64,000 nucleotides of DNA from Lathyrus oleraceus (Eukaryota > Streptophyta > Magnoliopsida > Fabales > Fabaceae): assembly GCF_024323335.1 (NCBI RefSeq), contig NC_066580.1:139743170-139807169 (forward strand). Reading direction: 5' to 3'. The notes beneath the pieces were generated by a model, which searched no databases, was not told the origin of the DNA, and worked only from the letters and a program-made list of their open reading frames with translations. Positions within the stretch are counted from its first letter, which is position 1, and each line of letters opens with the position of its first letter. Of this stretch, positions 14,761-58,319 are shown piece after piece. Made by a program: the position numbers and the translations under genes.

Positions 14761-15904
14761 AAGGCAGACACTTGTCGGGGACTAAATCGGAAGGGAATCA
14801 AGCTTTCCTTTCACGGGCTGGTGAGAAAATAAATCTCACTGGGATTATCGATTCTGAATGTTGCCAAGAGCAACTGCTGCAAATGTGCTACACTGATGTT
14901 GAAAAATGATCTGTCTCTTCTGGGGACATGATCCAATCTGGTTTAATGCATGTATGCATATGTTTGAGTTTTCTATGACGTAATGCTCCATACTGACTGG
15001 AAATGCTACGCGGTTTGAGAATGCGAATGCAAATGATGATTACTACATGCAAGATGCAAAGGGAGGAAAACTCCTGCTGGGAAAGCAAATGACCACTTTA
15101 CTGAGCACACAATTTCTGATTCGATCTTCCAACTCTGCGGGGACATACAACAATTCTGCTGAGGATACTTACTGATCTGACATTCTCAGAACGGTAGAGA
15201 AACCAACTCAACTGGGGAGTCACTTGTTAGGAAAACACCAACCTCTCGACCATGCTGGGGAAACAAATTCTGAACTCGACTTAGACGACCCAACTTCTTA
15301 CACGACTGGACAGTGTTGAAACAACAGGGTCTTCCTTCGAACAAACTTTGGCTCATCTGCTTTAGCCATCAATCAAAGATAGTAACCTGCAAAACGGCAA
15401 GACATACATGCCCCAGGGGATCGTATGGACAAACTATACTCAAGTGTACTCAACATTCAAAATGATTTTCAGATGTTTTATCTTTCTGCACGTCATTGTC
15501 TAGTCTTCATGTTTTTAGATGCAGTGTTTATCAAAAAATTTGGACGTTTTTGCAAACCAAACAGTAGAATAATAAGAAAAAAAGAAAACTAAACAAGAGA
15601 GCAATTTGACTGAATAACGACTTTTATTGTATGAAAATGGCCTATAAAGGCAAATACATCAGGAAGCAATTCCTAGGAAGAGGTAATTGCGCCAAAAGAG
15701 AAAATAAATTATCCTATTGGCAATGTGAACACGGCATTCCACTATTTTCCAATTCTGTCATGACTCATAGATCTTCAATTTCCCCCAAATTCTTTGCTTT
15801 CTGAGAAGAGTGATTGGACCGATCATATCCTTCAAGATGGTAGAAACTGAAACGCGATGAAGTACAGATAACTCAGACTGTAGTCTCCGCTTTAATCCCT
15901 CTTT
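14761..15904 (-). other. Rest of Ogre A 3' noncoding region
   Basis: No ORF. It contains many CTGGGGA-type blocks (the sense strand reads TCCCCAG), and a block at 14949-15011 that recurs in elements B and C (GACGTAATGCTCCATAC...GGAAATGCTACGCG on plus). The end near 15600-15800 has an A-rich run and TTTTATTGTATG-like sequence also seen in B at 19530. Confidence 0.6.
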
Positions 15905-16113
15905 TGCCTGGACCGCCTTTTCAGGTTTTCAATCCACTGGGATACCCATTTTTGCCTAAGCCGCCTTTGTAGGTTTTCGACTTACCGGGTGTACATATTA
16001 TTTTTTTATTCTTTATCCCTAACTTTTTCCCGAACCTTTTTCTTTTCTTTTTCTCTTGGTTCGCCGGGATACCCCTTTTTTTGCCTGGACTTTCTCTTTT
16101 TTTGTCCAGCGGG
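15905..16113 (-). ncRNA. Ogre A post-integrase hairpin array (candidate structured RNA)
   Basis: Four stem-loops in sense order: CTGGAC/GTCCAG (16104-16109 with 16085-16090), CGAACC/GGTTCG (16058-16063 with 16031-16036), TAAGTCG/CGGCTTA (15978-15984 with 15957-15963) and GGATTG/CGGTCC (15930-15935 with 15910-15915). Three of the four are followed by GGCAAAA in the sense strand; the CGAACC hairpin is followed by GGGAAAA. The last two contain an inner CC...GG stem after an A-rich bulge. Element B was inserted right at the start of this array, after AGCGGG. The same order of hairpins is found at 19826-20015. Confidence 0.7.
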
Positions 16114-17801
16114 TGTCGCAACCTGAAAAATACAGTGTGCAAAAAAACAACCGGCGAAAGAAAATGACAGAAGAGTCGCCACCGTGCGTTATTTATCCCA
16201 AAGGAGGGAAAGGAAACGCTCGAAGTAAACCTGAAAAGAGGAAAGGAAAAGACAAGGTCTCGCAACCAAATTTTGGGTTCGGGAGTCGGTTATGCGAAGG
16301 GAAGGTATTAGCACCCCTACGCATCCGTAGTACTCTATGGGATCCACTTTTGTAGTTCTTGTCTAAAGGGTGTGAGTTTATCTTGTGTTGTTTACTAAAA
16401 GAGGGGTCAAAAGAAAATGACTCGCACGGATGTCGCATCCACTGCATACGTATCTCATCTGAATAGGAGAATCAGAGTCTTCGTAGCTCGGCTGACCTAT
16501 GGGTTTGGGGGATGTGTGCTCGCTAAGACATCGCGTCTTATGCCTACGTATCTCATCTGGATTGAGAATCAGAGCAAGCCGTAGTTCGGCTAACTACGGG
16601 GTTATGGATTGGGTTTTGGACGAACGACGTTACTACGCAATCTACCGGATGCTCGACCTTTGGAGACTTACTCTCCTGTAGTAGAAGGAGTAAACGTGTT
16701 CTTAGGAGAAGAAAAATCAATGAGTTGGTAGGGTTAGGGATGCTAAGGCAAAAGAGTCTTGGACAAAGGAACCTGCATAAAGTAAACACAAAACATTGCC
16801 TCCTATCGAGGTCTTCCAGCTAGGAAAGCAGTAAAATGCGGGAAAAATGTAAAAGTACCACACGGATGAAGATCTGAGGTAACAACAATTAAAGGAACGA
16901 TAAACCCTGAGATCCTTCCAAGCTAACATCATCAAAGAAAGTGGGTCAGTACAGGTAATCGGAATGAACCCTCCAGGTGGTATCCCACAAATAAAGTGGA
17001 ACACCAGGCAAGCCATCTCTGCAAGAGTCATGTGAGCCCTCACAAAACAAAACTCAACAAACAGGTTAGAGAAACAAAATAGGGTAATCAAGAGTTGCCC
17101 CCAAATCAAAATGTAACCACATCAATCATGCCCTTTCAATTCACAAAAAGCTCACAAAAAGCAACCAAGGGTAGGAGGCCTAAACCTCTGGTCAAACACA
17201 TGCATCAAAAGGGTATCAAATTCACCCATAATACCTCATACACTAAGATGATTCATATTAAGAGCATAAAATTATGGGAATAAGGCAAACCTGATTGGAG
17301 AGCTTGATTGAAATTGAGTTGCACCCGTGAGGTTTACAAAACAATCTTTAGGGTTTATGTGAGGCAGAGGTGATTCTGTGCAGTTGAGTTCCCTTCAGGG
17401 TTTGGAGGCTGCTCTGAGTTCTCTGTTAGCTCTTCTCTCACTATCTTTTTCCCAGCCAAGGTAATAGGAATAGAATAAAAAAATGTTTCACTGAAACTCT
17501 GAATTTATAACCTGATTTTTGTGGACCTGTGGGCTCAAATGAGAGAGGTCTAAGTCCAAGATTTTTTTTCATTTATTTATTTATTTATTATTATTTATTT
17601 ATTTATTATTATTATTATTATTTTTTATTTTTTTCGTTTTTTTTCGTTTTTTTTTTGTTTTTTGTTTTTTTTTTTTTTTGAAAAAATATTCTGATTGCCA
17701 TGATGAAATGCAAATGCTAAATGACCTAAAAATGAATGCATGCATGAGGTGTAAAGCGTATGCTTCCAGGAAAAATGAAGGGTAAATTTTGGGGTATTAC
17801 A
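16114..17801 (-). repeat. 3' LTR of Ogre B (1688 bp)
   Basis: Sense start TGTAATACCCCAAAATTTAC (17801), sense end GGTTGCGACA (16114). TATA box on minus at 17502-17509. The U5 portion (16430-16590) contains two copies of a block with GATACGTATG-like and GATTCTC...GCTACGA-like sequence that is also found once in A and C. PBS-like AGAGTCGCCA at 16172-16181. Confidence 0.88.
17565..17685. repeat. Low-complexity T-rich tract in B LTR
   Basis: Runs of TTTA/TTA repeats followed by T-runs broken by CG and G. Simple sequence, no other content. Confidence 0.9.
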
Positions 17802-18462: not shown

Positions 18463-19825
18463 CTTCATGCCTATCAGCATCAGTAGAAATAGGGAACGAT
18501 AATAGAGGCGGCGCATGGGCCAATGACACTTGCTGGGGATAACAAAGGTAAGTCATGAACAATCTTCAGTCTGAGTACTGGAAACAACTTCTGGCTTATC
18601 ACTTGGGATACCGAGAATGTTTTATGTTTACATGCGTATGTTTGAATTTTTCAATGGCGTAATGCTCCATGAGAATGGAAATGCTACGCGATTTGGGAGG
18701 ATGCAATGCAATATGATTCTACATGCAGGGATGCGAAATGCTGGGTAGAATGCCAAGCTGAGGCAAGGGGATCTGCTGGGAAAATGATCACCATCTTTTG
18801 GACCCTGGCAAGGCTGCTGGATATGCACAACGCAAAGAATTCTGTGGGGAAATGACCTGCCACACGGTGTTCTAGCAATAACGAAATACCGAGATTCTGA
18901 CTAGGGAGAGAACGGCACTGAAAACCTGCTGTTGGGGAAAGCGATAGTGGTTATGGCAACCACGATCTGCGAGAGATGACTCAGCAGGGGAAGCAAACAC
19001 CGATACGGTACCGAGGTTCTGCTTCAAGGAAAGAAACCATGGATCTGGCATTGGGATTATCGATCTGGCCTCGAACTCTGAGGAGCAGCCGCTTCTGCTG
19101 GGAAGATACAATCTGGCACTGTCAACTCCACTGGGGGTATATAGTCTGACACTATCAACTCTACTGGGGAGTGTATAATCTGAAACCACCGCTTGGGGGG
19201 AGGTACAGTGGTGAGAACCTGTTGGGGATTGAAGAATCCAACGTTCTGATCAGCTCTGCAGGGATAAGATACCGAATTCGTCTGTTGGCGACTTCACTGG
19301 GGAAAACATTCACGATCATCTGCAGGGGATTTTAAGGAAATGCCCCGAGGGTACCTGTTCTGAATAGACGATCCAAAGCACTTAAAATTTACAACAATTT
19401 TAAATGTTTATTAAGCATGTACCTGTAAAGCTCTTATGTGTCATGATGCAATGTTTATCAAAAATTCGGACGTCATTTTTGCAAATAAAACAGAAAAATG
19501 AAAATGAAAACAAAGATATACTGAATAACATGATTTTATTGATTGAACGGCCTCTGAATAGGCATTTACATCAGGAAGCAATCCCTGGAAAGAGGTAATC
19601 GCACAACAGATAAAAACAGACATTAATCTAATGGCAATGTGAAATGGATTTCTATTGGGTTCCAATTCTGTTATGACTTGCTCGTCTTCAAGATCCTCCA
19701 GATGATTAGCTTTCTGAAAGAGTGATTGGACAGTTTCCTATCCTTCAAAAATTTCCAGTCATTGACACGAGATGAGATTCAGAACTACTCAGAACGCAGT
19801 CATTCGCTTAATCCCTAACTTTTGC
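18463..19825 (-). other. Proximal 3' noncoding region of Ogre B
   Basis: No ORF. Includes the conserved island at 18631-18690 (GGCGTAATGCTCCATGAG... GGAAATGCTACGCG on plus), repeated CTGGGGA/CTGCTGGG blocks (sense TCCCCAGCAG, for example 19135-19165), and T/A-rich sequence near 19490-19560 similar to A. Confidence 0.6.
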
Positions 19826-20015
19826 CTGGATCGCCCTTTTCGGGTTTTCAATCCACCGGGATACCCATTTTTGCCTAAGTTGCCTTTTCAGGTTTTCAAC
19901 TTACCGGGTGTACAATCTTTTCACTTTTAATCCCTAATTTTTGCCCGAACCTTTTTCATTTTCTTGGTTCGCCAGGATGCCCATTTTTGCCTGGACTACT
20001 CTTTTTATTGTCCAG
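19826..20015 (-). ncRNA. Ogre B post-integrase hairpin array (candidate structured RNA)
   Basis: Sense order: CTGGAC/GTCCAG (20010-20015 with 19991-19996), CGAACC/GGTTCG (19966-19971 with 19946-19951), TAAGTTG/CAACTTA (19897-19903 with 19876-19882), GGATTG/CGATCC (19849-19854 with 19828-19833). Each is followed by GGCAAAA-like sequence. In the last hairpin the outer stem is followed by AAAA and an inner CCC/GGG stem with a GAAAA loop. The array starts about 11 bp after the natural pol stop near 20026. Compared with A, stem three changed on both arms (TAAGTCG/CGGCTTA to TAAGTTG/CAACTTA). Confidence 0.75.
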
Positions 20016-20077
20016 CGGGTCTATTTCATGCGAAGTATTTTTTAACTGCGTCTGGGTTCACAGGGGAAGTGAAGTTT

Positions 20078-23000
20078 TCACCATCCATCGTTGCAAGCAT
20101 TAAGGCCCCCACCATCAAAAACCTTGGTGACACTATACGGTCCATCATAGTTAGGAGTCCACTTGCCCCTGTGATCTGTCTGAGGAGGAAGGATCCTTTT
20201 CAACACCAAATCTCCGACCTGGAAGCATCGAGGACGCACTTTCTGATCAAAGGCTCTCTTCATCCGACTTTGATACAACTGCCCATGACAAATGGCTGCC
20301 ATTCGCTTCTCTTTGATAAGACTCAACTCATTGAACCTTGTCCGAATCCATTCAGCTTCGTCTAACTTGACATCCAACAGGACTCTTAGAGAAGGAATCT
20401 CCACTTCAACAGGTAGGACTGCTTCCATACCATACACAAGGGAGTAAGGGGTTGCCCCGGTCGATGTACGTACTGAAGTACGGTACCCATGCAAGGCGAA
20501 GGGTAGCATCTCATGCCAATCTCTGTATGTAACGACCATCTTCTGCACAATCTTCTTTATGTTCTTATTTGCCGCCTCAACAGCACCGTTCATCTTAGGG
20601 CGGTAAGGGGAAGAATTGTGATGCTGAATGTTAAAGTTCTGGCACAACTCCTTCATCATTTTGTTGTTGAGATTAAAACCATTATCAGTAATGATTCTTT
20701 CGGGAATCCCATAGCGACAAATGATTTCTTTCTTGATGAAACGGGCAACCACATGTTTGGTGACATTCGCGAACGATGCTGCTTCGACCCACTTGGTGAA
20801 ATAGTCGATGGCAACAAGGATGAAGCGGTGCCCATTGGAGGTAGTCGGCTCGATCTTTCCAATCATATCAATGCCCCACATAGCGAAAGGCCACGGCGAA
20901 GACATCACATTCAAAGGATTCGATGGCACATGCACCTTATCAGCATAAATCTGGCATTTATGACACTTCCGAGCATATTTGAAACAATCAGATTCCATGG
21001 TCATCCAGTAATATCCCGCTCTCAACAATTTCTTAGCCGTTGCATGTCCGCCGGCATGAGTATCGAAGGAGCCTTCATGAACTTCCTGCATTAACATGTC
21101 TGCTTCGTGTCTACCCACGCATATGAGCAAAACCATGTCGAAGTTCCTCTTATACAGCACATCGTCTTTGTTCAAGAAGAAACTGCCTGCCAATCTTCTC
21201 AAAGTCTTTCTATCATTGTTGGATGCCTCTGCAGGGTACTCTTGATTCTTCAGAAAGCGCTTGATGTCGTGATACCAGGGCTTGTCGTCAACTATCAGTT
21301 CAGCAGGAAACACATATGCGGCCCTATCAAGGCGCATCACATCAATCCTGGGAGCGTGGTTCCACCGAATCACGTTGATCATGGAGGATAGAGTGGCAAG
21401 AGCATCTGCCATCTGGTTCTCATCACGAGGTATGTGATACAGCTTTACTGTTGTGAAGAAAGTCAATAGTCTTCTCGTGTAATCTCTGTAAGGGACCAGA
21501 TTGGGCTGGAGAGTGTTCCAATCACCATTCACTTGATTGATCACCAGAGTTGAATCTCCTAAGATGTCCAAAGTCTTGATTCTCAAATCAATGGCTTGCT
21601 CAATACCCAAGATACAGGCTTCATACTCAGCTTCATTATTGGTGCACTTGAAAGTCAGACGAGCGGTGAAAGGCATGTGGGCACCTTTCGGAGTTGTAAT
21701 GACAGCACCAATTCCACTTCCTCTGGCGTTGACGGCCCCATCAAACATTAAAGTCCACTTTTCGTCTGGATCAGGTCCCTCTTCAACAACTAGCTCTTCG
21801 CAGTCTTTCATCTTGAGGAACATGATGTCTTCATCTGGAAAATCAAACTTCATCGGCTCATAATCTTCAACCGGTTGCTGAGCAAGATAGTCCGACAGAA
21901 TACTCCCTTTGATGGCTTTCTGGGAAGTATACTGGATGTCGTACTCTGTCAGTACCATTTGCCAACGAGCAACTCTTCCGGTGAGAGCTGGCTTCTCAAA
22001 TATATACTTGACTGGATCCATTTTGGAGATCAGTAAGGTTGTGTGAGACAACATGTATTGTCTCAATCGCTTAGCAGCCCATGCAAGTGCACAACATGTC
22101 TTTTCAAGCATTGAGTATCTTGACTCGCAGTGTGTGAATTTATTACTCAGGTAGTAGATGGCATGCTCTTTCCTACCTGTCTTGTCGTGTTGACCGAGAA
22201 CACAACCCATGGAATTGTCCAGTACTGTCAAATACATAATTAGCGGTCTCCCTGGGACCGGAGGCACAAGGATAGGAGGATTCTGCAAATACTCTTTTAT
22301 CTTCTCGAACGCCCTTTGACAATCATCATTCCACCTGATAGCCTGATCTTTTCTCAACAATTTGAATATTGGCTCACACGTGGCTGTTAGGTGAGAGATG
22401 AACCTTGCAATGTAGTTCAACCTCCCTAAGAAACCACGGACTTGTTTCTCTGTTCTTGGCTCAGGCATTTCCTGTATCGCTTTCACTTTGGCCGGATCCA
22501 CCTCAATCCCTTTTTCACTAACAACAAAACCCAGTAGTTTTCCAGATCTCACCCCAAAAGTACACTTGTTCGGATTAAGCCTCAGCCTGAATTTCCTCAA
22601 ACGCTCAAACAGTTTCTGCAAATTCACCAAATGTTCTTCTTCTGTCTGAGATTTGGCAATCATATCATCAACATAAACCTCGATTTCATGATGAATCATA
22701 TCATGGAACAGAGTCACCATCGCTCGCTGATATGTTGCTCCGGCATTTTTCAGACCAAACGGCATCACCTTGTAACAGAAGGTGCCCCATGGGGTTATGA
22801 ATATTGTCTTCTCCATGTCTTCTGGTTCCATCTTAATTTGATTATAGCCAGAAAAGCCATCCATGAAGGAGAATACCGAGAACTGAGCCGTGTTATCCAC
22901 TAAAACGTCAATGTGAGGTAAGGGGAAATCATCTTTAGGACTAGCCCTGTTCAGATCCCGGTAGTCAACACACATCCATACCTTTCCATCCTTCTTAGGT

Positions 23001-23501: not shown

Positions 23502-23752
23502 CTGCATGAGTGATGGTATGTGCTTATGAGTGTGAAAGAAAAAAAAAAGTGGAAACTAAACAAAACATTGCCATTCTTTTTTGAAAAACTGCAAAAATAG
23601 AAAGACAGGGAACGAAATATTTGAATGCAAAAAAAGACATCTTTTATTTATGATAAAAAATGCAAGTGACACATAGATGAGCCCTACAATGAGTCATTAT
23701 GCCCTGGCGGAACGTAAGACTTGGATATGCATGAATAAACAAAGAAAATTAC
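23502..23752 (-). other. Ogre intron between gag and pol (251 bp)
   Basis: On minus, GA|GTAATTTTC overlaps the gag stop codon (the TAA is inside the donor), and the acceptor is CTCATGCAG|ATGCAC at 23502, preceded by a T/C-rich run. Removing it deletes the stop and joins the gag frame to the frame of MARFDF without a break. The matching intron in element A (56296-56556) has the same GAGTAATTTTC donor and also restores the frame. Ogre RNAs are known to be partly spliced at this position. Confidence 0.82.
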
Positions 23753-25482
23753 TCCTCCAGACAAGTGGCTTGGACAATCTCCTCAGAAGACCAATTGTTG
23801 AGAACTTCACCCGGGATCCTCGGACGCAACCAGTTGTCAATGTCGCAATCACTATCTCCATCTTCTTTGTTGACCACAGAGACTAATTTGACTTCTCCTT
23901 CAACCATGTTAACGTTGGCTCCACCATGCTGGGGCATGGGATTGTTGACGACATTAGGAGCTGGTGCAAAGTTAACGGCCTTTGAATCAATGAGGTCCTG
24001 AACTACGTGCTTAAAAGCTTTGCAGTTCTCAATATTGTGGCCAGGTGCCCCAGAGTGGAAGCTACACCTAGCGTTGGCGTCATAACCCACCAGAAGCCTA
24101 CCAACGGGAGGAGCCAGAGTGCGCAACTGCACAAGTTGTAGTTGTTGAAGACTAGAAAGCAACTGAGCGTACGACATTGGAAGAGTGTCGAAACGTCGGT
24201 CCATCGTCCTTGGCCTCGGTTGATAGGCGGGTCTGTTACCCGGTTGTTGTGGTTGGTACTGAGCTGGTTGACGCTGTGGTTGTTGTTGTTGTAGTGGTGC
24301 TGCAGCTGGAATGGTCACAGCCGCAACATACGGTTGCTGATGATAGTTCTGAAAGTTATTCCTCCGGATATCCCTGTTCTGATAAGAAGATATGGCACTT
24401 GCATCCCCTTCTCTCCTCTTTTGTCCCTGAATGAATGGCTTCTTCACCCCTGATGAAGATCCACCTCCACTCTGGGTCTTGTATGTCCTCAGGTAATTCT
24501 CCACCCTCTCTCCGGTAGAGACTACATCAGCAAAATTGGAGGCATTGCAACCCACCAGGCGCTCCAAATAAGGTCCTGGCAGAGTGTTCACGGACATGTT
24601 AGCCATTTCCTTCTCCAACATAGGAGGTTGAACACGGTAAGCTGTTTCTCTCCAGCGTTGAGCGTATTCTCTGAAGCACTCATTGCTTTTAAGAGACAGA
24701 TTTTGAAGTTGAGTTCTGTCCGGAGCCATGTCTGCATTATACTGATACTGCTTCACGAAAGCCTCAGCCAAATCCCTCCAGCAACGGATGTGGGCTCTGT
24801 CCAGCCTCATATACCATTCCAGGGATGCCCCAGCTAGGCTGGCCTGGAAAAAGTACATAAGAAACTTTTCATCATCGGAGTATGCAACCATTTTACAGAA
24901 ATAGGCTTGCACATGGGTCTTCGGGCAAGAGTTGCCATTGTATTTGTCAAATATCGGGACCTTGAATTTCGGTGGCACTCTCACACCTGGGATCAGCCCC
25001 AAGTCAGCAACATCTACTCCCAGAGGATTCTGTCCTTCCACTGCCTTCAACCTCTCTTCCAATCTTCTAAACATGGGGTCCACACCATGACCCATACCAA
25101 AGTCTTCCTGCAGCAGGGGGAACTGATCGTCCTGATCATCATGAACGGGTTGTTGACCGGAGGTGACATGTAGGATTGGGATAGGCCCCGGTTCATTGGA
25201 TCCATTAGCCTCTCCAGCTGGAGGATCAGTCACCGTCTCTGGTTGAGCAGGGGGATTCCTCTGTATCATCTGCCTGAGCTCTTGCTGTCCCTGAGCCACC
25301 CCTTGAACCACATCCATGAATTGATTCATGCGGATTTTCATCTCGGCGAACTCTGCCTGTAGGCTTTCCATTACTCTCTGTTGGTTTCTGCGGGTACCGT
25401 ACCGGTGAATGCCTGGGTCAGCTATCCTGTTGATTGGAACACCAAACAAACTGAGAACACTGTGGCGGTACCTGTTATGCAA
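23749..25482 (-). CDS. gag: Ogre B gag (protease missing)
   Basis: 577 residues. The capsid-like core runs about 185-345 (PIFDKYNGNSCPKTHVQAYF, YFFQASLAGASLEWYM, REYAQRWRETAYRVQPPMLEKEM), followed by a Gln/Pro/Arg-rich stretch (about 375-440) and an atypical zinc knuckle C-x2-H-x5-H-x4-C at 473-487 (CSFHSGAPGHNIENC). The last ~40 residues (EDGDSDCDIDNWLRP...) are the tail that normally follows protease, but no DTG/DSG protease core is present, so protease was lost by a deletion joined at LVSVVNK/EDGDSD. The start could be the first Met or the internal Met 37 (MESLQAEFAEMK), which aligns with the start of C's gag. The protein would form the particle shell and bind RNA. Confidence 0.85.
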   Translation of the reverse strand: MHNRYRHSVLSLFGVPINRIADPGIHRYGTRRNQQRVMESLQAEFAEMKIRMNQFMDVVQGVAQGQQELRQMIQRNPPAQPETVTDPPAGEANGSNEPGPIPILHVTSGQQPVHDDQDDQFPLLQEDFGMGHGVDPMFRRLEERLKAVEGQNPLGVDVADLGLIPGVRVPPKFKVPIFDKYNGNSCPKTHVQAYFCKMVAYSDDEKFLMYFFQASLAGASLEWYMRLDRAHIRCWRDLAEAFVKQYQYNADMAPDRTQLQNLSLKSNECFREYAQRWRETAYRVQPPMLEKEMANMSVNTLPGPYLERLVGCNASNFADVVSTGERVENYLRTYKTQSGGGSSSGVKKPFIQGQKRREGDASAISSYQNRDIRRNNFQNYHQQPYVAAVTIPAAAPLQQQQPQRQPAQYQPQQPGNRPAYQPRPRTMDRRFDTLPMSYAQLLSSLQQLQLVQLRTLAPPVGRLLVGYDANARCSFHSGAPGHNIENCKAFKHVVQDLIDSKAVNFAPAPNVVNNPMPQHGGANVNMVEGEVKLVSVVNKEDGDSDCDIDNWLRPRIPGEVLNNWSSEEIVQATCLEE

Positions 25483-32987: not shown

Positions 32988-34508
32988 ATGGACCAAGTTC
33001 AGACGGAGTTGGCTGAGATGAGGGCGAACATGGCCCAGTTCATGGCAATGATGCAAGGGGTTGCGCAAGGTCAGGAAGAGCTTAGAGCCCTGGTTCAGAG
33101 ACAGGAGACCGTGATTCAGACGTCCAACCGTGCTTCACCTGCTGGTATCCCTGCTCATGAGAATATCAATGTTGTTGCTCCCACTAACGACTATGCCGTC
33201 GGGGATGAGTTGAGAGGAATAAGAATTAATGGACAGCCTCTTGCGACAGAGACTGTCAATGCCAGAGATACCCGAGCTCCGGTTCGTCATCCAGCTCCTA
33301 TTGTCGACAGACAAGAGGACATGTTCACATTGATGAGTGAAGATGATGATGTGGTTAGAGTTGAGGATAGGGATAGAAAAGTGGATGCCCTTGCTGAGAA
33401 AATTCGTGCCATGGAGTGTCAGAACTCTCTGGGGTTCGATGTAACCGATATGGGTTTGGTTGATGGGCTGAGGATCCCCTACAAATTCAAAGCACCCTCG
33501 TTCGACAAATATAATGGTACTTCCTGTCCTCGCACCCATGTGCAGGCTTACTTCAGGAAAATCTCCGCATACACTGACGATGAAAAGATGTGGATGTACT
33601 TTTTCCAAGACAGTTTGTCTGGAGCGTCTTTGGACTGGTACATGGATCTGAAGAAAGAATCAGTCAGAAGCTGGAAAGATCTGGGTGAAGCCTTTCTGAG
33701 GCAATACAAGCACAACATGGACATGGCTCCGAGTCGAACTCAGTTGCAGAGTTTGTGTCAGAAGACTGGTGAAAGCTTCAAGGAGTACGCCCAAAGATGG
33801 CGTGAGCTAGCCGCAAGAGTACAACCTCCGATGTTGGAGAGAGAGCTGACTGACATGTTCATCGGGACCTTGCAAGGTGTGTTCATGGACCGCATGGGAA
33901 GTTGCCCGTTCAGTAGCTTTTCTGATGTTGCTGTCTGCGGGGAGAGAACTGAGGGTCTCATTAAAGCAGGAAAGATACAAGATCCTGGCTCTTCCAGTTC
34001 TAAGAAGCCACTCTCTGGGGCACCCAAAAGGGGAGAGAATGAAACAAATGTTGTGCACCGTCGGAGGAATGTGAACAGAGGACAGTATCGTCAGGTTGCT
34101 GTTGTGACTATTCCAGCAACTCAAACTCAACAACAGCAGAGAAGACCAACTCAGCAATATCAACAACAACAACATCGTCCTCAGCAGCAGGCTTACCAGC
34201 CTCACAATGGTAATCAAGCCAGTACAAGTAATGAGAGGAAGAAGATCATTTTTGATCCGATTCCTATGTCGTATGCAGAGCTGTATCCCTCTTTGATAGA
34301 GCGGAACTTGATTACTCCCAGAGACCCGCCGGCTGTACCCGTCAACCCTCAGTGGTGGTATAGGCCTGATCAACATTGTGTGTATCATTCGGGTGCTCCT
34401 GGTCATGATGTGGATAGTTGCTTTCAGTTGAAGATGAAGGTTCAAGACCTTGTGAGGTCAGGGATTCTGAACTTTGAGGACTTAGGTCCCCATGCTAATC
34501 AAGCTTGA
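32988..34508 (+). CDS. gag: Ogre C gag, copy 1 (intact)
   Basis: 506 residues from MDQVQTELAEMRANMAQFMAMM. A coiled-coil-like N-terminus is followed by a capsid core (SFDKYNGTSCPRTHVQAYF, YFFQDSLSGASLDWYMDLKKESVRSW, EYAQRWRELAARVQPPMLEREL), a Gln-rich linker (about 375-410) and a zinc knuckle of form C-x2-H-x5-H-x4-C at 464-478 (CVYHSGAPGHDVDSC). It lacks the protease part and stops 28 residues after the knuckle. Homologous to B gag throughout. It is the only intact gene of element C and may let its RNA be packaged, with enzymes from elsewhere. Confidence 0.9.
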   Translation: MDQVQTELAEMRANMAQFMAMMQGVAQGQEELRALVQRQETVIQTSNRASPAGIPAHENINVVAPTNDYAVGDELRGIRINGQPLATETVNARDTRAPVRHPAPIVDRQEDMFTLMSEDDDVVRVEDRDRKVDALAEKIRAMECQNSLGFDVTDMGLVDGLRIPYKFKAPSFDKYNGTSCPRTHVQAYFRKISAYTDDEKMWMYFFQDSLSGASLDWYMDLKKESVRSWKDLGEAFLRQYKHNMDMAPSRTQLQSLCQKTGESFKEYAQRWRELAARVQPPMLERELTDMFIGTLQGVFMDRMGSCPFSSFSDVAVCGERTEGLIKAGKIQDPGSSSSKKPLSGAPKRGENETNVVHRRRNVNRGQYRQVAVVTIPATQTQQQQRRPTQQYQQQQHRPQQQAYQPHNGNQASTSNERKKIIFDPIPMSYAELYPSLIERNLITPRDPPAVPVNPQWWYRPDQHCVYHSGAPGHDVDSCFQLKMKVQDLVRSGILNFEDLGPHANQA

Positions 34509-35583: not shown

Positions 35584-35610
35584 AACAAAAACAAAAAAGT
35601 AGAACAGCTC

Positions 35611-35766
35611 GCTAAGTCGAACACCCCAAAGGGCGACTTAGGCAAAAAGGAGCGTCTCGGTGGATTGAAAACCCGAAAGGGCGATCCAGGCAAAAGTTAG
35701 AGACATTGAAAGAAAAAAAGAATTTGCATCCCGCTAGATTGAACACCTCACACTGGGGCAATCTAG
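35611..35766 (+). ncRNA. Post-integrase hairpin array, C copy 1 (candidate structured RNA)
   Basis: Three stem-loops: TAAGTCG/CGACTTA (35613-35619 with 35634-35640), GGATTG/CGATCC (35662-35667 with 35682-35687), CTAGATTG/CAATCTAG (35734-35741 with 35759-35766). Each is followed by GGCAAAA. The second encloses an inner CCC-GAAA-GGG stem-loop after AAAA. Stems one and two match stems three and four of A and B. Confidence 0.75.
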
Positions 35767-35770
35767 GCAA

Positions 35771-37730
35771 AAATTAGGGATTTGGCAAGTAACTGCATCC
35801 TGACAAGACTGTGCTCTATATCTGTCATCCGCCAGAGATTCTCGATTTGTCGTTGACTGAAGCTTCGAATACATCGAAATTCGAAATGGTAGAGAAAAGG
35901 TCATTATGTTCAATGTAGCCCTCTCCAATATATATCACCGATTTCAAACTTGTACAGATCTATGGAGTCTTGCCATTTGCAGACTACCATTCCATCACAT
36001 CAATTTGAGCTTTTATCCAATTATTTGCACTCTTATTTGTTTCAACTCAACAAATGTTTTGCATGTTTTTAATTGATAAAGTATCATTGTTTTCAAAATA
36101 AACAAATTTTTCACAAAATTGTTCTTAAGCAAAGTGAGCATTCACAATGATGGAAGGATACTTAGGAGATTCGCAGTGCTCTCCCAAGGGTGGTATGATT
36201 ACCAACAGGTAAGACATTTGTTCGTATCTCGAGCATAACTGTATCTTTTTCCTGTAGAACCTCTTATGGTTTCTCCTCAGCGAGGTTGCCCAGTGCAGTG
36301 TTGGTTGAAGTTGTTCATCTTCATGTCCCCGGCAGTGCGGCATTCGTCCTCCAAGTCCCTGTTAGCCCTATTGTGGTGCATCCCCCAGTAGAGTGTTGTT
36401 TGAGCCCTATTGTGGGGCATCCCCAGCAAGGTTGCTGTTAAAATACTGTTGTGGGGAGTTCCCCAAGCAGAGTGTTTACTGAAGACTTCAACTTTCGTCT
36501 CTTCAGCAGAGCAGCCTTCTCCTTTCCCCGGTATGGGTGCTTGTCTTTGGAAGATTCGGTACTTGGTGGATTGACATCCCAGTACTCCGTCATTTCCCTC
36601 GGATAGATTCCTCAACAGAGTTGCTGGCATGATGAACTTTATCAATGCCTATCTATCCTCACCAGAGATCTGGTTGATTCTTGGTATCTCTGCTTTCCAG
36701 CATGAGTGAGAAGTCGGTGCTCCCCCGGCAGAGTTTTCCTCAAGCAGATCTCTTCAAGCAGAGTCTCCCCACAAAGTTGAAGTATCTGATCTTTGGGCTC
36801 CCCAGCGGAGTTTTCATCATTTGCATTTTGCATATAGTAATCATTGCATCCTCAAATTGCGTAGCATTTCCATTCAATATGGAGCATTACGCCATAGAAA
36901 AATTCAAACATATGCATTCATGTGTTACCCACCAGACCGTATCCCCGGCAGAGGCGGATTCTCGTTCAACATCTGTACGGCACATTTGCTACAGTTGCTC
37001 CTGACAGCATTCAGGATTGATACCCCCCTGAGAGGTTTATTTCCTCATCCGTTGGTGAAAGGAAAACCAGATCTCCCCAGTAGATCCTCCCCTAGCAGAG
37101 GTGGGTGTGTCTGATCTCTCCATATAGAGTCGACCCCTTAAGCAGAAAGTGTCTGTCATTTCCTTCTGCGCTCCCCACTGAGTTATATCCTCGTGGATGA
37201 CGGTTGCTTCCGTTCCCTCCCACACATAATGGGATGGGTTTTCCCTATTGAGTTCTTTCCTCATTAGGATGAGTCTTGATTCAGTTTTCCTTTTTGGATC
37301 GATCCTGAACTGGCTTCCTTGGGCTGTCTCTTGTGTTTCCCTGTGGTATAAATGAATAGTTGCTCACTAACCGGCACTCATTCATCTTATCCTCAGCGGA
37401 ATGTGTTGGCTTCTACCTACGAACCGGTAGTTGTAAGTCCTATCTCCGTGGTTTTCTGCCTACTAACCGGTAGATGTAATCCCCTCTTTGTGGTTATCAT
37501 TATCCAGTCTCGATATTGATATTCCTTTTCCCTTTCGGATGTTTGCTTTGATTAAGCATCTTCTCCCCAGCGGGTCTTCCCCTTCCTTTTGGATAGTTGC
37601 TCCGAGTAAGCCATTTTATCCTCAGTGGGTCTTCTTTCATTTACCGTTGCTGGTAATGTTTGTGGTTTCCCCTTTTGATTGGTCATCTTTGCATACCTAG
37701 TCTGGTACCCCGATGCCTTTCTTTTCGGTT
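35771..37730 (+). other. 3' noncoding region of C copy 1 with PBS-complementary repeats
   Basis: No gene. Between 36381 and 37600 the motif TCCCCAGCAGAG and variants recur (36381 CCCCAGTAGAGTG, 36421 CCCCAGCAAGG, 36460 CCCCAAGCAGAGTG, 36722 CCCCCGGCAGAG, 36800 CCCCAGCGGAG, 36945 CCCCGGCAGAG, 37074 CCCCAGTAGA). The conserved island shared with A and B is 36859-36922 (GCGTAGCATTTCCATTC...GGAGCATTACGCC). Confidence 0.65.
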
Positions 37731-48097: not shown

Positions 48098-48253
48098 CTA
48101 AGTCAAACACCCCAAAGGGCGACTTAGGCAAAAAGGAGCGTCTCGGTGGATTGAAAACCCGAAAGGGCGATCCAGGCAAAAGTTAGAGACATTGAAAAAA
48201 AAAAGAATTTGCATCCCGCTAGATTGAACACCTCACACTGGGGCAATCTAGGC
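48098..48253 (+). ncRNA. Post-integrase hairpin array, C copy 2
   Basis: Same three hairpins as copy 1; one change (TAAGTCG to TAAGTCA) breaks the closing pair of the first stem. Confidence 0.7.
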
Positions 48254-48255
48254 AA

Positions 48256-51033
48256 AAATTAGGGATTTGGCAAGTAACTGCATCCTGACAAGACTGTGCT
48301 CTATATCTGTCATCCGCCAGAGATTCTCGATTTGTCGTTGACTGAAGCTTCGAATACATCGAAATTCGAAATGGTAGAGAAAAGGTCATTATGTTCAATG
48401 TAGCCCTCTCCAATATATATCACCGATTTCAAACTTGTACAGATCTATGGAGTCTTGCCATTTGCAGACTACCATTCCATCACATCAATTTGAGCTTTTA
48501 TCCAATTATTTGCACTCTTATTTGTTTCAACTCAACAAATGTTTTGCATGTTTTTAATTGATAAAGTATCATTGTTTTCAAAATAAACAAATTTTTCACA
48601 AAATTGTTCTTAAGCAAAGTGAGCATTCACAATGATGGAAGGATACTTAGGAGATTCGCAGTGCTCTCCCAAGGGTGGTATGATTACCAACAGGTAAGAC
48701 ATTTGTTCGTATCTCGAGCATAACTGTATCTTTTTCCTGTAGAACCTCTTATGGTTTCTCTTCAGCGAGGTTGCCCAGTGCAGTGTTGGTTGAAGTTGTT
48801 CATCTTCATGTCCCCGGCAGTGCGGCATTCGTCCTCCAAGTCCCTGTTAGCCCTATTGTGGTGCATCCCCCAGTAGAGTGTTGTTTGAGCCCTATTGTGG
48901 GGCATCCCCAGCAAGGTTGCTGTTAAAATACTGTTGTGGGGAGTTCCCCAAGCAGAGTGTTTACTGAAGACTTCAACTTTCGTCTCTTCAGCAGAGCAGC
49001 CTTCTCCTTTCCCCGGTATGGGTGCTTGTCTTTGGAAGATTCGGTACTTGGTGGATTGACATCCCAGTACTCCGTCATTTCCCTCGGATAGATTCCTCAA
49101 CAGAGTTGCTGGCATGATGAACTTTATCAATGCCTATCTATCCTCACCAGAGATCTGGTTGATTCTTGGTATCTCTGCTTTCCAGCATGAGTGAGAAGTC
49201 GGTGCTCCCCCGGCAGAGTTTTCCTCAAGCAGATCTCTTCAAGCAGAGTCTCCCCACAAAGTTGAAGTATCTGATCTTTGGGCTCCCCAGCGGAGTTTTC
49301 ATCATTTGCATTTTGCATATAGTAATCATTGCATCCTCAAATTGCGTAGCATTTCCATTCAATATGGAGCATTACGCCATAGAAAAATTCAAACATATGC
49401 ATTCATGTGTTACCCACCAGACCGTATCCCCGGCAGAGGCGGATTCTCGTTCAACATCTGTACGGCACATTTGCTACAGTTGCTCCTGACAGCATTCAGG
49501 ATTGATACCCCCCTGAGAGGTTTATTTCCTCATCCGTTGGTGAAAGGAAAACCAGATCTCCCCAGTAGATCCTCCCCTAGCAGAGGTGGGTGTGTCTGAT
49601 CTCTCCATATAGAGTCGACCCTTAAGCAGAAAGTGTCTGTCATTTCCTTCTGCGCTCCCCACTGAGTTATATCCTCGTGGATGACGGTTGCTTCCGTTCC
49701 CTCCCACACATAATGGGATGGGTTTTCCCTATTGAGTTCTTTCCTCATTAGGATGAGTCTTGATTCAGTTTTCCTTTTTGGATCGATCCTGAACTGGCTT
49801 CCTTGGGCTGTCTCTTGTGTTTCCCTGTGGTATAAATGAATAGTTGCTCACTAACCGGCACTCATTCATCTTATCCTCAGCGGAATGTGTTGGCTTCTAC
49901 CTACGAACCGGTAGTTGTAAGTCCTATCTCCGTGGTTTTCTGCCTACTAACCGGTAGATGTAATCCCCTCTTTGTGGTTATCATTATCCAGTCTCGATAT
50001 TGATATTCCTTTTCCCTTTCGGATGTTTGCTTTGATTAAGCATCTTCTCCCCAGCGGGTCTTCCCCTTCCTTTTGGATAGTTGCTCCGAGTAAGCCATTT
50101 TATCCTCAGTGGGTCTTCTTTCATTTACCGTTGCTGGTAATGTTTGTGGTTTCCCCTTTTGATTGGTCATCTTTGCATACCTAGTCTGGTACCCCGATGC
50201 CTTTCTTTTCGGTTGATCTATCCTTTAACAACCTACAACCCGGTTAGGATAATCTTCCATGCGAGTGTATTATCTACGTTTTGACGGCTATAGATAATAT
50301 ATCTCATGCGCTCTTTGGTCAATCTTTTGATTGTTTTCACCATTAGAGTAAGATTCGTATTCCTTTGTTCGGAATCGAATGTCCATCCTTTAACAAGTTT
50401 TCCTTCGCTCTCTTCAGGATGATGTCGGTCGATCTATCCTTTAACAACCTACAACCCGGTTAGGATAATCTTCCATGCGAGTGTATTATCTACGTTTTGA
50501 CGACTATAGATAATATACCTCATGCGCTCTTTGGTCAGTCTTTTGATTGTTTTCACCATCAGAGCAAGATTCGTATTCCTTTGTTCGGAATCGAATGTCC
50601 ATCCTTTAACAAGATTGCTTTGCTCGCTCTCTTCAGGATGTTGGGTGTTTTGGAATACACCAATTCACGATTTCGGTCGATTTATCCTTTAACAACCTAC
50701 CAACCGGTTAGGATGATCTTCCATGCGAGTATATTATCTACGTTTTGACGGCTATAGATAATATATCTCATGCGCTCTTTGGTTGAACTCTTTGTTTGTT
50801 CCCCAGCTGAGTAAGATTCGTATTCCTTTGTTCGGAATCGAATATCCATCCTTTAACAAGTTTTCCTTTGCTCTCTTCAGGATGATGAGTGTTTTGGAAC
50901 ACAAACCAATTCACGTTTTGGTCGGCCACCTTTTTCATGCCTACAACCCGGTATCCTTGGTGTTCCTTCCTGTTTTCTCTTTGTCGTGACCTTGATCCCC
51001 AGAGAGTTACCTCTCCGTTGGTTTCGATAAACG
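48256..51033 (+). other. 3' noncoding region of C copy 2, truncated
   Basis: Copy of 35771-38555: PBS-complementary blocks, conserved island (49344-49407) and the 216-bp repeats (from about 50215). It stops within the first minisatellite unit at about 51033, where it joins an LTR remnant. Confidence 0.75.
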
Positions 51034-51125
51034 TCGAGCGTTCCCTTTCCCTCTTTTGGGATAAATAACGCACGGTGGCGGCTCTGTTGTCTTCGTTTCC
51101 CGCTGGTTTTTCGCGTAATGCGACA
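51034..51125 (+). repeat. LTR 3 remnant of Ogre C
   Basis: Only the last ~90 bp of the LTR remain (CGTTCCCTTTCCCTCTTTTG to GCGACA). The join AAACGTCGAG/CGTTCCC shares TCGAG with both parents, so a deletion of about 5.9 kb through a 5-bp microhomology is likely. Confidence 0.85.
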
Positions 51126-56556: not shown

Positions 56557-58319
56557 TCTGTCTGAAGAGTAACTTGGACTATTTCTTCAGCCGTCCAGTT
56601 GTTGATCTTCTCCCCTGGAGCACACCGGCGCACCCAATTATCCATATCACAATCACTGTCACCATCTTCATTGTCTGTTGCAAAGACATCCCCGTGATTC
56701 ATCAATCCAGCACACTCTGAACACTCAGGTATAGGGGTGAGCTTCTCTTTCAGTTGCACCCTGAGTTCAACAACTTCCTCCAGGAAATGAGATGCACGGA
56801 TGTCACTTCCTCTGAGTTGGCTCTCTGTTGCATGCCTCAGATCTACCTCTTTCTTCAACTGAGTATCTTTGTCCTTAAGCTGTCTTTCCAAGTCTCGTAT
56901 CTTCTTTTTGTAATTGGCTTCCGATTTTTGTAATCTCAAGCGTTCATGGTGTTCTTCGTCCAACATCGTTTCTATCTCATCATAGGACCTCTTTTTGTTT
57001 CTGGATCTACTAGAACTTTCACCTTGCACTCCTTTGAGTTTACGAGCCAAACTCAACCTATCAGCATTTGCTTTGTAAAGCTCCATTTGGATCTCTTGTT
57101 CATTTTATTTCAACTGGCGATTCTCCATTAAGGCTTGTTTGTAATACTCAGCAGGCACACTCTCAGAAAGGATCAAAGGCGGTTGCTCCTGTAATGGTTC
57201 CATCCGGTCATATGGTAGCAACAAAGTCCCAACTCTTTCCTTGACCCACTCAGTGTAAGCAGGCATAGCAATTGCAAACTTCCTCCCTAAAACAGATCCA
57301 TCTTTTATACCAATATTCTCCCAAGCTTTTCCCACTTGCTCCAATCTTGCTGGATCGCTCTGTTTCTCAAAGTACACATTTTCAGCTATCTCGACATCTT
57401 GCGGCCTTTTCTTCATGACAAAACCCAACTGACGGAGAGAAAGAACCGGGTTGTAGTTGATGCAACCCCTAGTCCCTATGAGTGGAACATTGAGAAACTT
57501 TCCAAAACTCATAATGATGTTGCGCACATTAATTCTATAAGCCTGCCACTTGATATCATGAGATGTGAGCGACATGATCCTCTGAGTCCATTTGTGAGTA
57601 TTCTGAGTATCCACAAACGGTCCATTGGTTGGTAGAAAAGACAAGAACCACTTGAGTAGCAATGGGAGACAACACCTGATAGCTCCACACTTACCATGCC
57701 TGCTGTGTATCGCATAATAGGTGTCAGCTAACAAGGTAGGCACCGGGTTTCCTCCAATGAAAATAGTGATTGCTGCCAGGTCCACGAAACTAGGTATACT
57801 AGGGAACAGAATAACTCCATAAATCATGACGGCCAACTGAGCGTTGAAAGCTACCCAATTTCCTTTCTTTTCTTCTTCCTTAGCCATCCTTACCAAGAAC
57901 TTCAAGGATAAGCCCACAACATCACCGCTTGGTTTCCAATTATCGCTCACTTCCTTGATGCTCAAATAAAGAGCCTTAGTGACAGCTTTGAAATCCACCT
58001 CCTTTGGCACATCCAGGAAAGGTACTCGATTTTTGATTTGGACATTCATAAGGATGGAATACTCTTCAAGAGTGGGAGCTAGCTGGTAGTCCTGAAAAGT
58101 AAAGCAATGAAGCTCCGGGTCATAGAACTGTAAGAGAGTCTGCAGAGGTACCGGATCAACCACCATCTTCAACAATGCCAAGATATTCCCATACTGATCA
58201 TCAAAAACTTTCTGATTACGGTCGGTCACGAGACCACCCAATTCTTCCAAAGATGTCAACGGCTCACGGTAAAAGTTGTAGGTGCAAGTCTTCCTATTCA
58301 ACTCTGGAATGGCAGCCAT
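56553..58319 (-). pseudogene. Ogre A ORF1 fused to gag-pro tail, one in-frame stop
   Basis: From ATG at 58319 (MAAIPELNRKTCTYNFYREP), 404 residues of ORF1 typical of Ogre elements (DUF7745-like as I recall it; function unknown). It includes PLQTLLQFYDPELHCFTFQDYQLAPTLEEYSILMN-type motifs, then TAA at 57107-57105 after NRQLK. The frame continues as a charged coiled-coil region (EEHHERLRLQKSEANYKKKIRDLERQLKDKD) and PECSECAGLMNHGDVF, then passes straight into EDGDSDCDMDNWVRR, the tail of gag-pro. All of gag and protease between is missing. Confidence 0.8.

What the first reader, a model, noticed from the sequence alone, without database searches (positions are those of the whole stretch)
19826..20015. 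Conserved array of two-part hairpins right after the Ogre pol stop codon
Seen in B (19826-20015), A (15905-16113) and C (35611-35766, 48098-48253). In sense order the stems are CTGGAC/GTCCAG, CGAACC/GGTTCG, TAAGTYG/complement, GGATTG/complement (C has the last two plus CTAGATTG/CAATCTAG). Almost every hairpin is followed by GGCAAAA, and two of them contain an A-rich bulge and an inner CC(C)/GG(G) stem with a GAAA-type loop. Stem three is TAAGTCG/CGACTTA in C, TAAGTCG/CGGCTTA (G-U) in A and TAAGTTG/CAACTTA in B, a two-sided compensatory change. The surrounding 3' region is otherwise hypervariable. I infer an RNA element, possibly for readthrough, 3' stability, packaging or translation; I know of no description of it.
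Basis: partly seen in the sequence, partly recalled or inferred. Interest (0 to 1): 0.87.

Follow-up and report, generated by a model that had tools for sequence, protein, structure and literature searches.

The report
Tandem RNA hairpins in Ogre retrotransposons
Giant plant jumping genes of the Ogre type carry, just after their last gene, a row of paired RNA hairpins whose shape is kept by evolution even in copies whose enzyme gene is dead, so it is probably a handle the element needs to copy itself, although what grips it is not yet known.

Summary
Each hairpin is a two-storey module: an outer stem of 3-5 pairs, an asymmetric internal loop (5' G-X, 3' GGCAAAA), an inner stem of 5-7 pairs and a cap. 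Short (S) and long (L) modules abut with 0-1 nt in 53 of 53 aligned arrays, while the next spacer varies from 15 to 28 nt. Families carry S.L + S.L or S.L + L, 5-32 nt after the pol stop. A 16-nt piece occurs at about 105,000 places in the 3.8-Gb genome (reversed control 97). Of 20 pol-anchored Ogre ends taken without the motif, 20 have the array. Both stems covary: 829 of 866 cells pair, and the seven top-ranked of 406 column pairs are all proposed pairs. In a family whose pol remnant is dead, modules vary about 3-fold less than the remnant (p = 2.6e-5). So this is a selected cis-acting RNA element. No Rfam match, and no description found in the searches made. Readthrough is not supported. 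Best guess: a multi-site binding array on genomic RNA, most likely for packaging; nuclear export or stability is the main rival.

The parts
20026..20028 (-). B: stop codon after the pol-end residues KYFA
   Evidence: In this copy the open pol ORF ends earlier, at 20078, so the frame is broken near its end.
19980..20019 (-). B module S1
   Evidence: CCCG / TGGG outer, CTGGAC / GTCCAG inner
19930..19978 (-). B module L1
   Evidence: ATCCT / GGGAT outer, CGAACC / GGTTCG inner. Not listed by model R1 up to E 1
19863..19909 (-). B module S2
19811..19862 (-). B module L2, abutting S2
16071..16114 (-). A module S1 (its first base is the last base of B's LTR)
16015..16070 (-). A module L1, with GGGAAAA instead of GGCAAAA
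   Evidence: model hit at E 0.0024
15944..15990 (-). A module S2
15895..15943 (-). A module L2
35581..35583 (+). C: stop codon after KYFA, behind an out-of-frame pol remnant
35607..35653 (+). C module S
35654..35704 (+). C module L, abutting S
35728..35781 (+). C module L3
48093..48139 (+). C second copy, module S
48140..48190 (+). C second copy, module L
48213..48266 (+). C second copy, module L3

Best explanation
Shown: the array is a structured RNA element of Ogre RNA, kept by selection in cis. It is built of S.L hairpin dyads: two abutting two-storey hairpins, each with the same internal loop (G-X / GGCAAAA) between two stems that change freely as long as they pair. Inferred: the stems hold the near-invariant unpaired G and A residues in register, and the array is a multi-site docking platform for a protein. 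The most likely protein is the element's own Gag, which would use it to choose Ogre RNA, its own or that of a pol-deficient derivative, for packaging. I hold the structure-and-selection part at about 0.93; the packaging assignment is the uncertain step and sets the confidence given.
For: Covariation in both stems. Fixed S-L abutment beside variable spacers. Near-invariant loop: in 80 distinct modules the G-X G is 73 of 80, GGC is 76, 77 and 72 of 80 (the CAAAA run was part of how modules were anchored). Present in 20 of 20 pol-anchored ends. In five copies with a dead pol remnant and, in window C, an open Gag, modules stay 3-fold less variable than the remnant and free of indels. Repetition of equal sites and unpaired purines resembles known Gag targets such as the purine loop of MMTV (PMC8096270, title and abstract start in a listing). 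Gag of B and of C shares a variant knuckle CX2HX5HX4C.
Against: No binding or packaging data. Retroviral packaging signals usually lie at the 5' end (recalled). The loop is nearly constant although B and C Gags are only 42% identical, which fits a host factor at least as well. The selection test rests on five copies, four of them found by a motif in the array (its 16 columns were removed). Energy z-scores are modest; some outer stems are not drawn by RNAalifold.
Confidence: 0.45

Rival explanations
1. Export or stability element of the constitutive-transport kind: the repeated internal loops recruit host export or mRNP factors, so that intron-bearing Ogre RNA leaves the nucleus and survives.
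For: Size (183-233 nt from the stop to the end of the array) and repeated internal loops recall the MPMV element, 150-175 nt with two internal loops (PMC7551171, passages). Ogre transcripts are only partly spliced (PMC6317226, passage). A loop constant across 42%-identical Gags points to a host factor.
Against: Separate hairpins, not one long stem. C lacks the region between gag-pro and RT, where the known intron lies, and still keeps the array. No factor known.
Confidence: 0.27
2. Shield against nonsense-mediated decay or aid to termination, acting just after the stop codon ahead of a very long 3' UTR.
For: 5-32 nt after the stop in 52 arrays; about 4.2 kb from stop to the inferred LTR start in C. 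Stop-proximal elements of this kind exist (listing; passages of PMC6277124).
Against: In C the open Gag ORF ends about 1.1 kb before the array, yet the array is kept. In a plant assay a hairpin formed just after the stop abolished protection, although a readthrough structure protected (PMC6277124).
Confidence: 0.1
3. 3' translation enhancer that brings translation factors to the long Ogre message.
For: Structured 3' elements of plant RNA viruses do this (PMC4820102, abstract start in a listing).
Against: No Rfam family matches up to E 5. No complementary 5' partner was looked for.
Confidence: 0.06
4. No function: diverged tandem repeats of a hypervariable 3' UTR, kept palindromic by template switching.
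For: Tandem repeats in Ogre 3' UTRs are well known (PMC7004042, passages). L036 and L048 show module exchange.
Against: The unpaired loop and the S-L gap are conserved too, which palindrome correction does not explain. Modules resist change where the neighbouring pol remnant, spacers and next 3' stretch do not.
Confidence: 0.06
5. Stop-codon readthrough element.
For: Hairpins directly after the stop.
Against: The frame closes after 1-38 codons in 14 of 14 copies tested, and the array is kept where pol is dead.
Confidence: 0.01

Closest known systems
Hypervariable tandem-repeat 3' UTR of Tat/Ogre elements (Macas et al. 2009, not seen; cited in PMC7004042 and PMC11963269)
   Same: Same place in the same elements; repeated units.
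   Different: Those are variable minisatellites; here a few diverged units keep one secondary structure and loop. The words hairpin, stem and secondary structure do not occur in PMC3305785, PMC11963269 or PMC7004042.
Retroviral packaging signals (for example the MMTV purine loop, PMC8096270, listing)
   Same: Stem-loops offering unpaired purines at several sites in genomic RNA.
   Different: At the 3' end of pol instead of the 5' leader (location of the classical signals recalled); Gag binding untested.
MPMV constitutive transport element (PMC7551171, passages)
   Same: Similar size, 3' region, repeated internal loops.
   Different: That is one long stem with two loops; here 3-4 separate hairpins in S.L dyads with another loop.
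Rous sarcoma virus RNA stability element (PMC2925335, PMC5580461; abstract starts in the listing)
   Same: Directly after a stop codon ahead of a very long 3' UTR.
   Different: Retroviral shielding has been linked to PTBP1 (PMC4764554, abstract start); here the unpaired parts are A- and G-rich, and the array is kept where the translated stop is about 1.1 kb away.

Membership tests
Ogre lineage (Tat clade of Ty3/gypsy): the host element | Additional RNase H between RH and INT | tested here: met
   B: RT_RNaseH 437-541, RVT_3 607-724, H2C2 820-873; D: RT_RNaseH 360-464, RVT_3 530-647, H2C2 743-796. Reading RVT_3 as aRH is mine; the criterion is from PMC6317226 passages.
[quoted passage not shown]
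   B: ORFs 25482-23749 and 23563-20078, 185 nt apart. Splicing not tested.
Ogre lineage (Tat clade of Ty3/gypsy): the host element | Extra ORF upstream of gag | tested here: inconclusive
   D has a DUF7745 ORF (57105-58319) on the 5' side of its pol; the gag between them was not tested.
Known RNA family (Rfam 15) | Match to a covariance model | tested here: not met
   0 matches at gathering level in the window; 0 up to E 5 for arrays B and C.
Structured RNA element | Covariation above phylogenetic background | tested here: met
   Seven top-ranked of 406 column pairs are proposed pairs; two have E below 0.05 and two more 0.11-0.12 in a home-made tree null. R-scape itself was not available.
Readthrough element | Open extension frame after the stop | tested here: not met
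   Closed after 1-38 codons in 14 of 14 copies.
Retroelement packaging signal | Kept in cis by elements that depend on others for enzymes | tested here: met
   five copies.
Retroelement packaging signal | Bound by Gag and needed for packaging | not testable with these tools
   Needs experiments.
MPMV-type constitutive transport element | One long stem-loop with two internal loops | tested here: not met
   3-4 separate hairpins.
MPMV-type constitutive transport element | Recruits an export receptor | not testable with these tools
   Needs experiments.
Stop-proximal NMD shield (RSE type) | Position directly after the translated stop codon | tested here: inconclusive
   5-32 nt after the pol stop in 52 arrays, but about 1.1 kb after the open Gag ORF in C.

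The most novel reading that the evidence does not exclude
A previously undescribed RNA family, built of abutting hairpin dyads with a near-invariant G-X / GGCAAAA internal loop, is a constitutive RNA transport element of plant LTR retrotransposons that is read by a conserved plant host factor. With about 10^5 genomic copies it would be one of the most numerous structured RNA elements of its host, and it would explain how giant intron-bearing retrotransposon RNAs leave the plant nucleus.
Probability: 0.2. Interest if true: 0.88.

Novelty: new variant of a known kind. Interest (0 to 1): 0.72.

Why it matters
Ogre elements make up a large share of some legume genomes (45% in Lathyrus sativus according to PMC7004042, passage), yet none of the passages I read names a cis-acting RNA signal in them. 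A compact, covarying element of about 200 nt right after pol is a defined target: it can be probed, deleted, swapped and used as bait for its protein. It is also a structural marker for Ogre 3' ends and pol-less derivatives, and it opens a test of how plant retrotransposon RNAs are told apart from ordinary messages.

Tried and rejected
Readthrough: rejected. Rfam relatives: none. Classical CX2CX4HX4C knuckle: none in the six frames of the window, but both Gags have a CX2HX5HX4C variant. Relatives outside this genome: none confirmed in viral contigs by protein, none by one DNA pattern, none confirmed in prokaryote contigs; plant collections are not held, so conservation beyond this species is untested. 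Papers: six motif strings matched one unrelated paper (listing); word searches combining Ogre or LTR retrotransposon with hairpin, stem-loop or covariation terms listed no description (25 of 81, 12 of 12 and 12 of 53 papers shown). The first alignment of all module types misplaced S1 and was not used for counts. RNAalifold pairs the S1 outer arm of S.L-S.L arrays with the far S2 arm (columns 27-31 with 196-200) instead of locally, and does not draw the third outer stem of S.L-L arrays; the single-sequence fold of A differs too. These count against certainty about those outer stems. A pol query from the second subfamily (L008) did not complete, so the pol-anchored sample of 20 covers the B family only (94-98% identity; 20 of the 150 listed places).

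Full report
WHAT IS THERE. The window lies in a 3.8-Gb genome with seven very large contigs (G000:C2:139743170-139807169). It holds several Ogre-type Ty3/gypsy elements: B on the minus strand (gag ORF 25482-23749, RT to INT ORF 23563-20078), a fragment A that begins at the end of B's LTR (16114), tandem C copies on the plus strand, and a D truncated in the integrase. B's pol shows RT, RH, an RVT_3 domain and INT in the order that PMC6317226 gives for Ogre and Retand (passages).

THE MODULE. In sense orientation each hairpin is one storey of a larger module: an outer stem of 3-5 pairs; on the 5' side G-X and on the 3' side GGCAAAA plus a short linker; an inner stem of 5-7 pairs; and a cap. In many modules the cap is an AAAA bulge and a CC(C)/GG(G) mini-stem with a GAAA-like loop; in the first two modules of B-type arrays it is an A-rich loop. 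Short modules (S) have linkers such as AAAAAT, long modules (L) such as AAAAGTTA. Arrays are S1.L1-spacer-S2.L2 (B, A and 33 further copies) or S.L-spacer-L (two C copies and 16 further copies). The S-L gap is constant: S1-L1 is 1 nt in 35 of 35, S2-L2 is 0 in 35 of 35, S-L is 0 in 18 of 18. The following spacer ranges from 15 to 28 nt. The array starts 5-32 nt after the stop in 52 arrays (A has no stop). A model trained on seven window modules (B S2 and L2, A S2 and L2, C S, L and L3), with only the inner hairpin paired, also finds untrained first-type modules: B S1 at E 1e-5, A S1 at 2e-5, A L1 at 0.0024; B L1 was not listed. In 261 kb (window plus 20 stretches, 18 of them evenly spaced) all 27 hits up to E 1 lie in arrays, in the window and in L009, L010, L015, L023 and L026. 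So the modules look like diverged repeats of one another.

MORE THAN CHANCE. A strict scan gives 15 modules and 4 clusters in the window, against a mean of 0.6 modules and no cluster in 40 dinucleotide shuffles. The 16-mer GGCGATCCAGGCAAAA has 105,131 places with at most two mismatches in the genome; its reversed control has 97.

HOW CONSTANT. Motif-anchored: 28 of 28 loci (L001-L008, L029-L048) hold at least two scored modules, and a KYF-x-stop was recognised upstream in 27 of 28 (not in L006). All 34 KYF-x-stop sites in the sequence held at that time, window included, are followed by at least one scored module; most of these loci had been chosen by motif. Pol-anchored, independent of the motif: 20 of 20 have the array. 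In two (L060, L066) the KYF-x-stop pattern was not recognised, and in several a module is damaged. These 20 are close relatives of B, taken from 150 scored of 170,202 first-look candidates. Evenly spaced: of 18 stretches, the two with an Ogre pol 3' end (L015, L026) both have the array, L026 in a decayed copy. A third (L023) has two modules in a degenerate element whose kind I did not test. More distant gypsy pol in L017, L022 and L024 (22-34% identity) comes with none.

COVARIATION. On 15 S.L-S.L arrays 97.9% of 748 cells pair, 7 of 50 pairs change on both sides (reached by 1 of 500 shuffles), and slid structures pair at most 48%. On 18 S.L-L arrays 96.9% of 830 cells pair, 4 of 47 pairs change on both sides (2 of 500), and slid structures pair at most 49%. 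The count of further pair types does not exceed shuffles (457 and 243 of 500 reach it). In L036 and L048 the first L module has the sequence of the last, so the three two-sided pairs of that helix are not independent events. Pooling modules (53 arrays, 194 modules, 80 distinct; columns from sequence alignment) gives 829 of 866 inner and outer cells paired. The seven highest of 406 column pairs, five inner and two outer, are all proposed pairs. Their E-values in a null that re-places substitutions on a FastTree tree are 0.025, 0.03, 0.11, 0.12, 0.4, 1.5 and 3.4; with 56 distinct modules the six highest were also proposed pairs. The null is my own script, not R-scape, and only two pairs pass 0.05. 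Examples: inner TAAGTCG/CGACTTA, TAAGTTG/CAACTTA, TGAGTCG/CGGCTCA, ATAAGTTG/CAACTTAT; outer ACCC/GGGT, GCTC/GAGC, ACTC/GAGT, GTCTC/GAGAC, ATCCC/GGGAT, GTCCC/GGGAC. The X-g1 pair at the base of the inner stem is not general (27 of 80); a G-C pair inside the loop is possible in 66 of 80.

SELECTION IN CIS. C keeps an open 506-aa Gag (32988-34508), but only about 1.07 kb lies between it and the KYFA stop, and the part next to the stop is out of frame. Five such copies (window C, L040, L041, L045, L046; the second window copy was left out as a tandem duplicate) vary in 69 of 288 remnant columns but in 10 of 136 module columns, after removal of the 16 columns by which four of them were found (odds ratio 4.0, Fisher p = 2.6e-5). 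Modules show no indel. Substitutions per site are 0.112 (remnant), 0.032 (modules), 0.167 (spacers) and 0.264 (next 3' stretch). Eleven copies with a mostly open pol end show no such contrast (91 of 288 against 45 of 136), as expected where pol is itself constrained. L026 was left out as a decayed copy. Bootstrap of the variable-column ratio: 0.31, 95% interval 0.13-0.52. Limits: few copies, treatment of columns as independent, possible recombination, one genome.

WHAT IT DOES. The array is kept where pol is not, so it is not a pol coding or readthrough device. The most constant bases are unpaired G and A residues, while the stems may change if they pair. That is what a protein-docking RNA with several equal sites would look like. 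Packaging by Gag is my first choice, because derivatives that need enzymes in trans keep it and because both Gags carry a variant knuckle. Against it, the loop is nearly constant while the Gags are 42% identical, which favours a host factor and so export or stability. Protection from nonsense-mediated decay fits the position in full copies but not C, and a hairpin formed after the stop undid protection in a plant assay (PMC6277124, abstract and passages). All function is inference.

KNOWN OR NEW. Tandem repeats in Ogre 3' UTRs are well known (PMC7004042, PMC11963269, PMC3305785: word finds only). I saw no hairpin dyads described in those passages, in the listings, or in Rfam. Most subscription papers, including the main Ogre papers, are not in the library. 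I file it as a new variant of a known kind: a cis-acting structured RNA of a retroelement with an architecture that I could match to no family.

Noticed in passing
B about 18580-18760 (-), C about 36780-37070 (+), A about 14780-15090 (-): A second block of about 70 nt is conserved between the three elements, roughly 1.2-1.4 kb after the array. By eye it can form a hairpin, GCGTA / TACGC with an inner CCAT / ATGG. Covariation not tested.
   Followed up: partly
window about 27291-53728 (+): Tandem C elements that appear to share LTRs of about 4.7 kb (repeat offset 12,488 bp, 99.5% identity), with a deletion junction near 51031-51038 before a third partial copy.
   Followed up: partly
B Gag (23749-25482, -) and C Gag (32988-34508, +): Both Gags carry near their ends a CX2HX5HX4C motif (HSGAPGH) in place of a classical CCHC knuckle.
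   Followed up: no
L036 and L048 (arrays on -): The first L module carries the sequence of the last L module, which points to module exchange within the array by recombination or template switching.
   Followed up: partly
window 57105-58319 (-): A 404-aa ORF on the 5' side of D's pol matches DUF7745 (E 7e-116), a candidate for the extra upstream ORF of Ogre elements.
   Followed up: no
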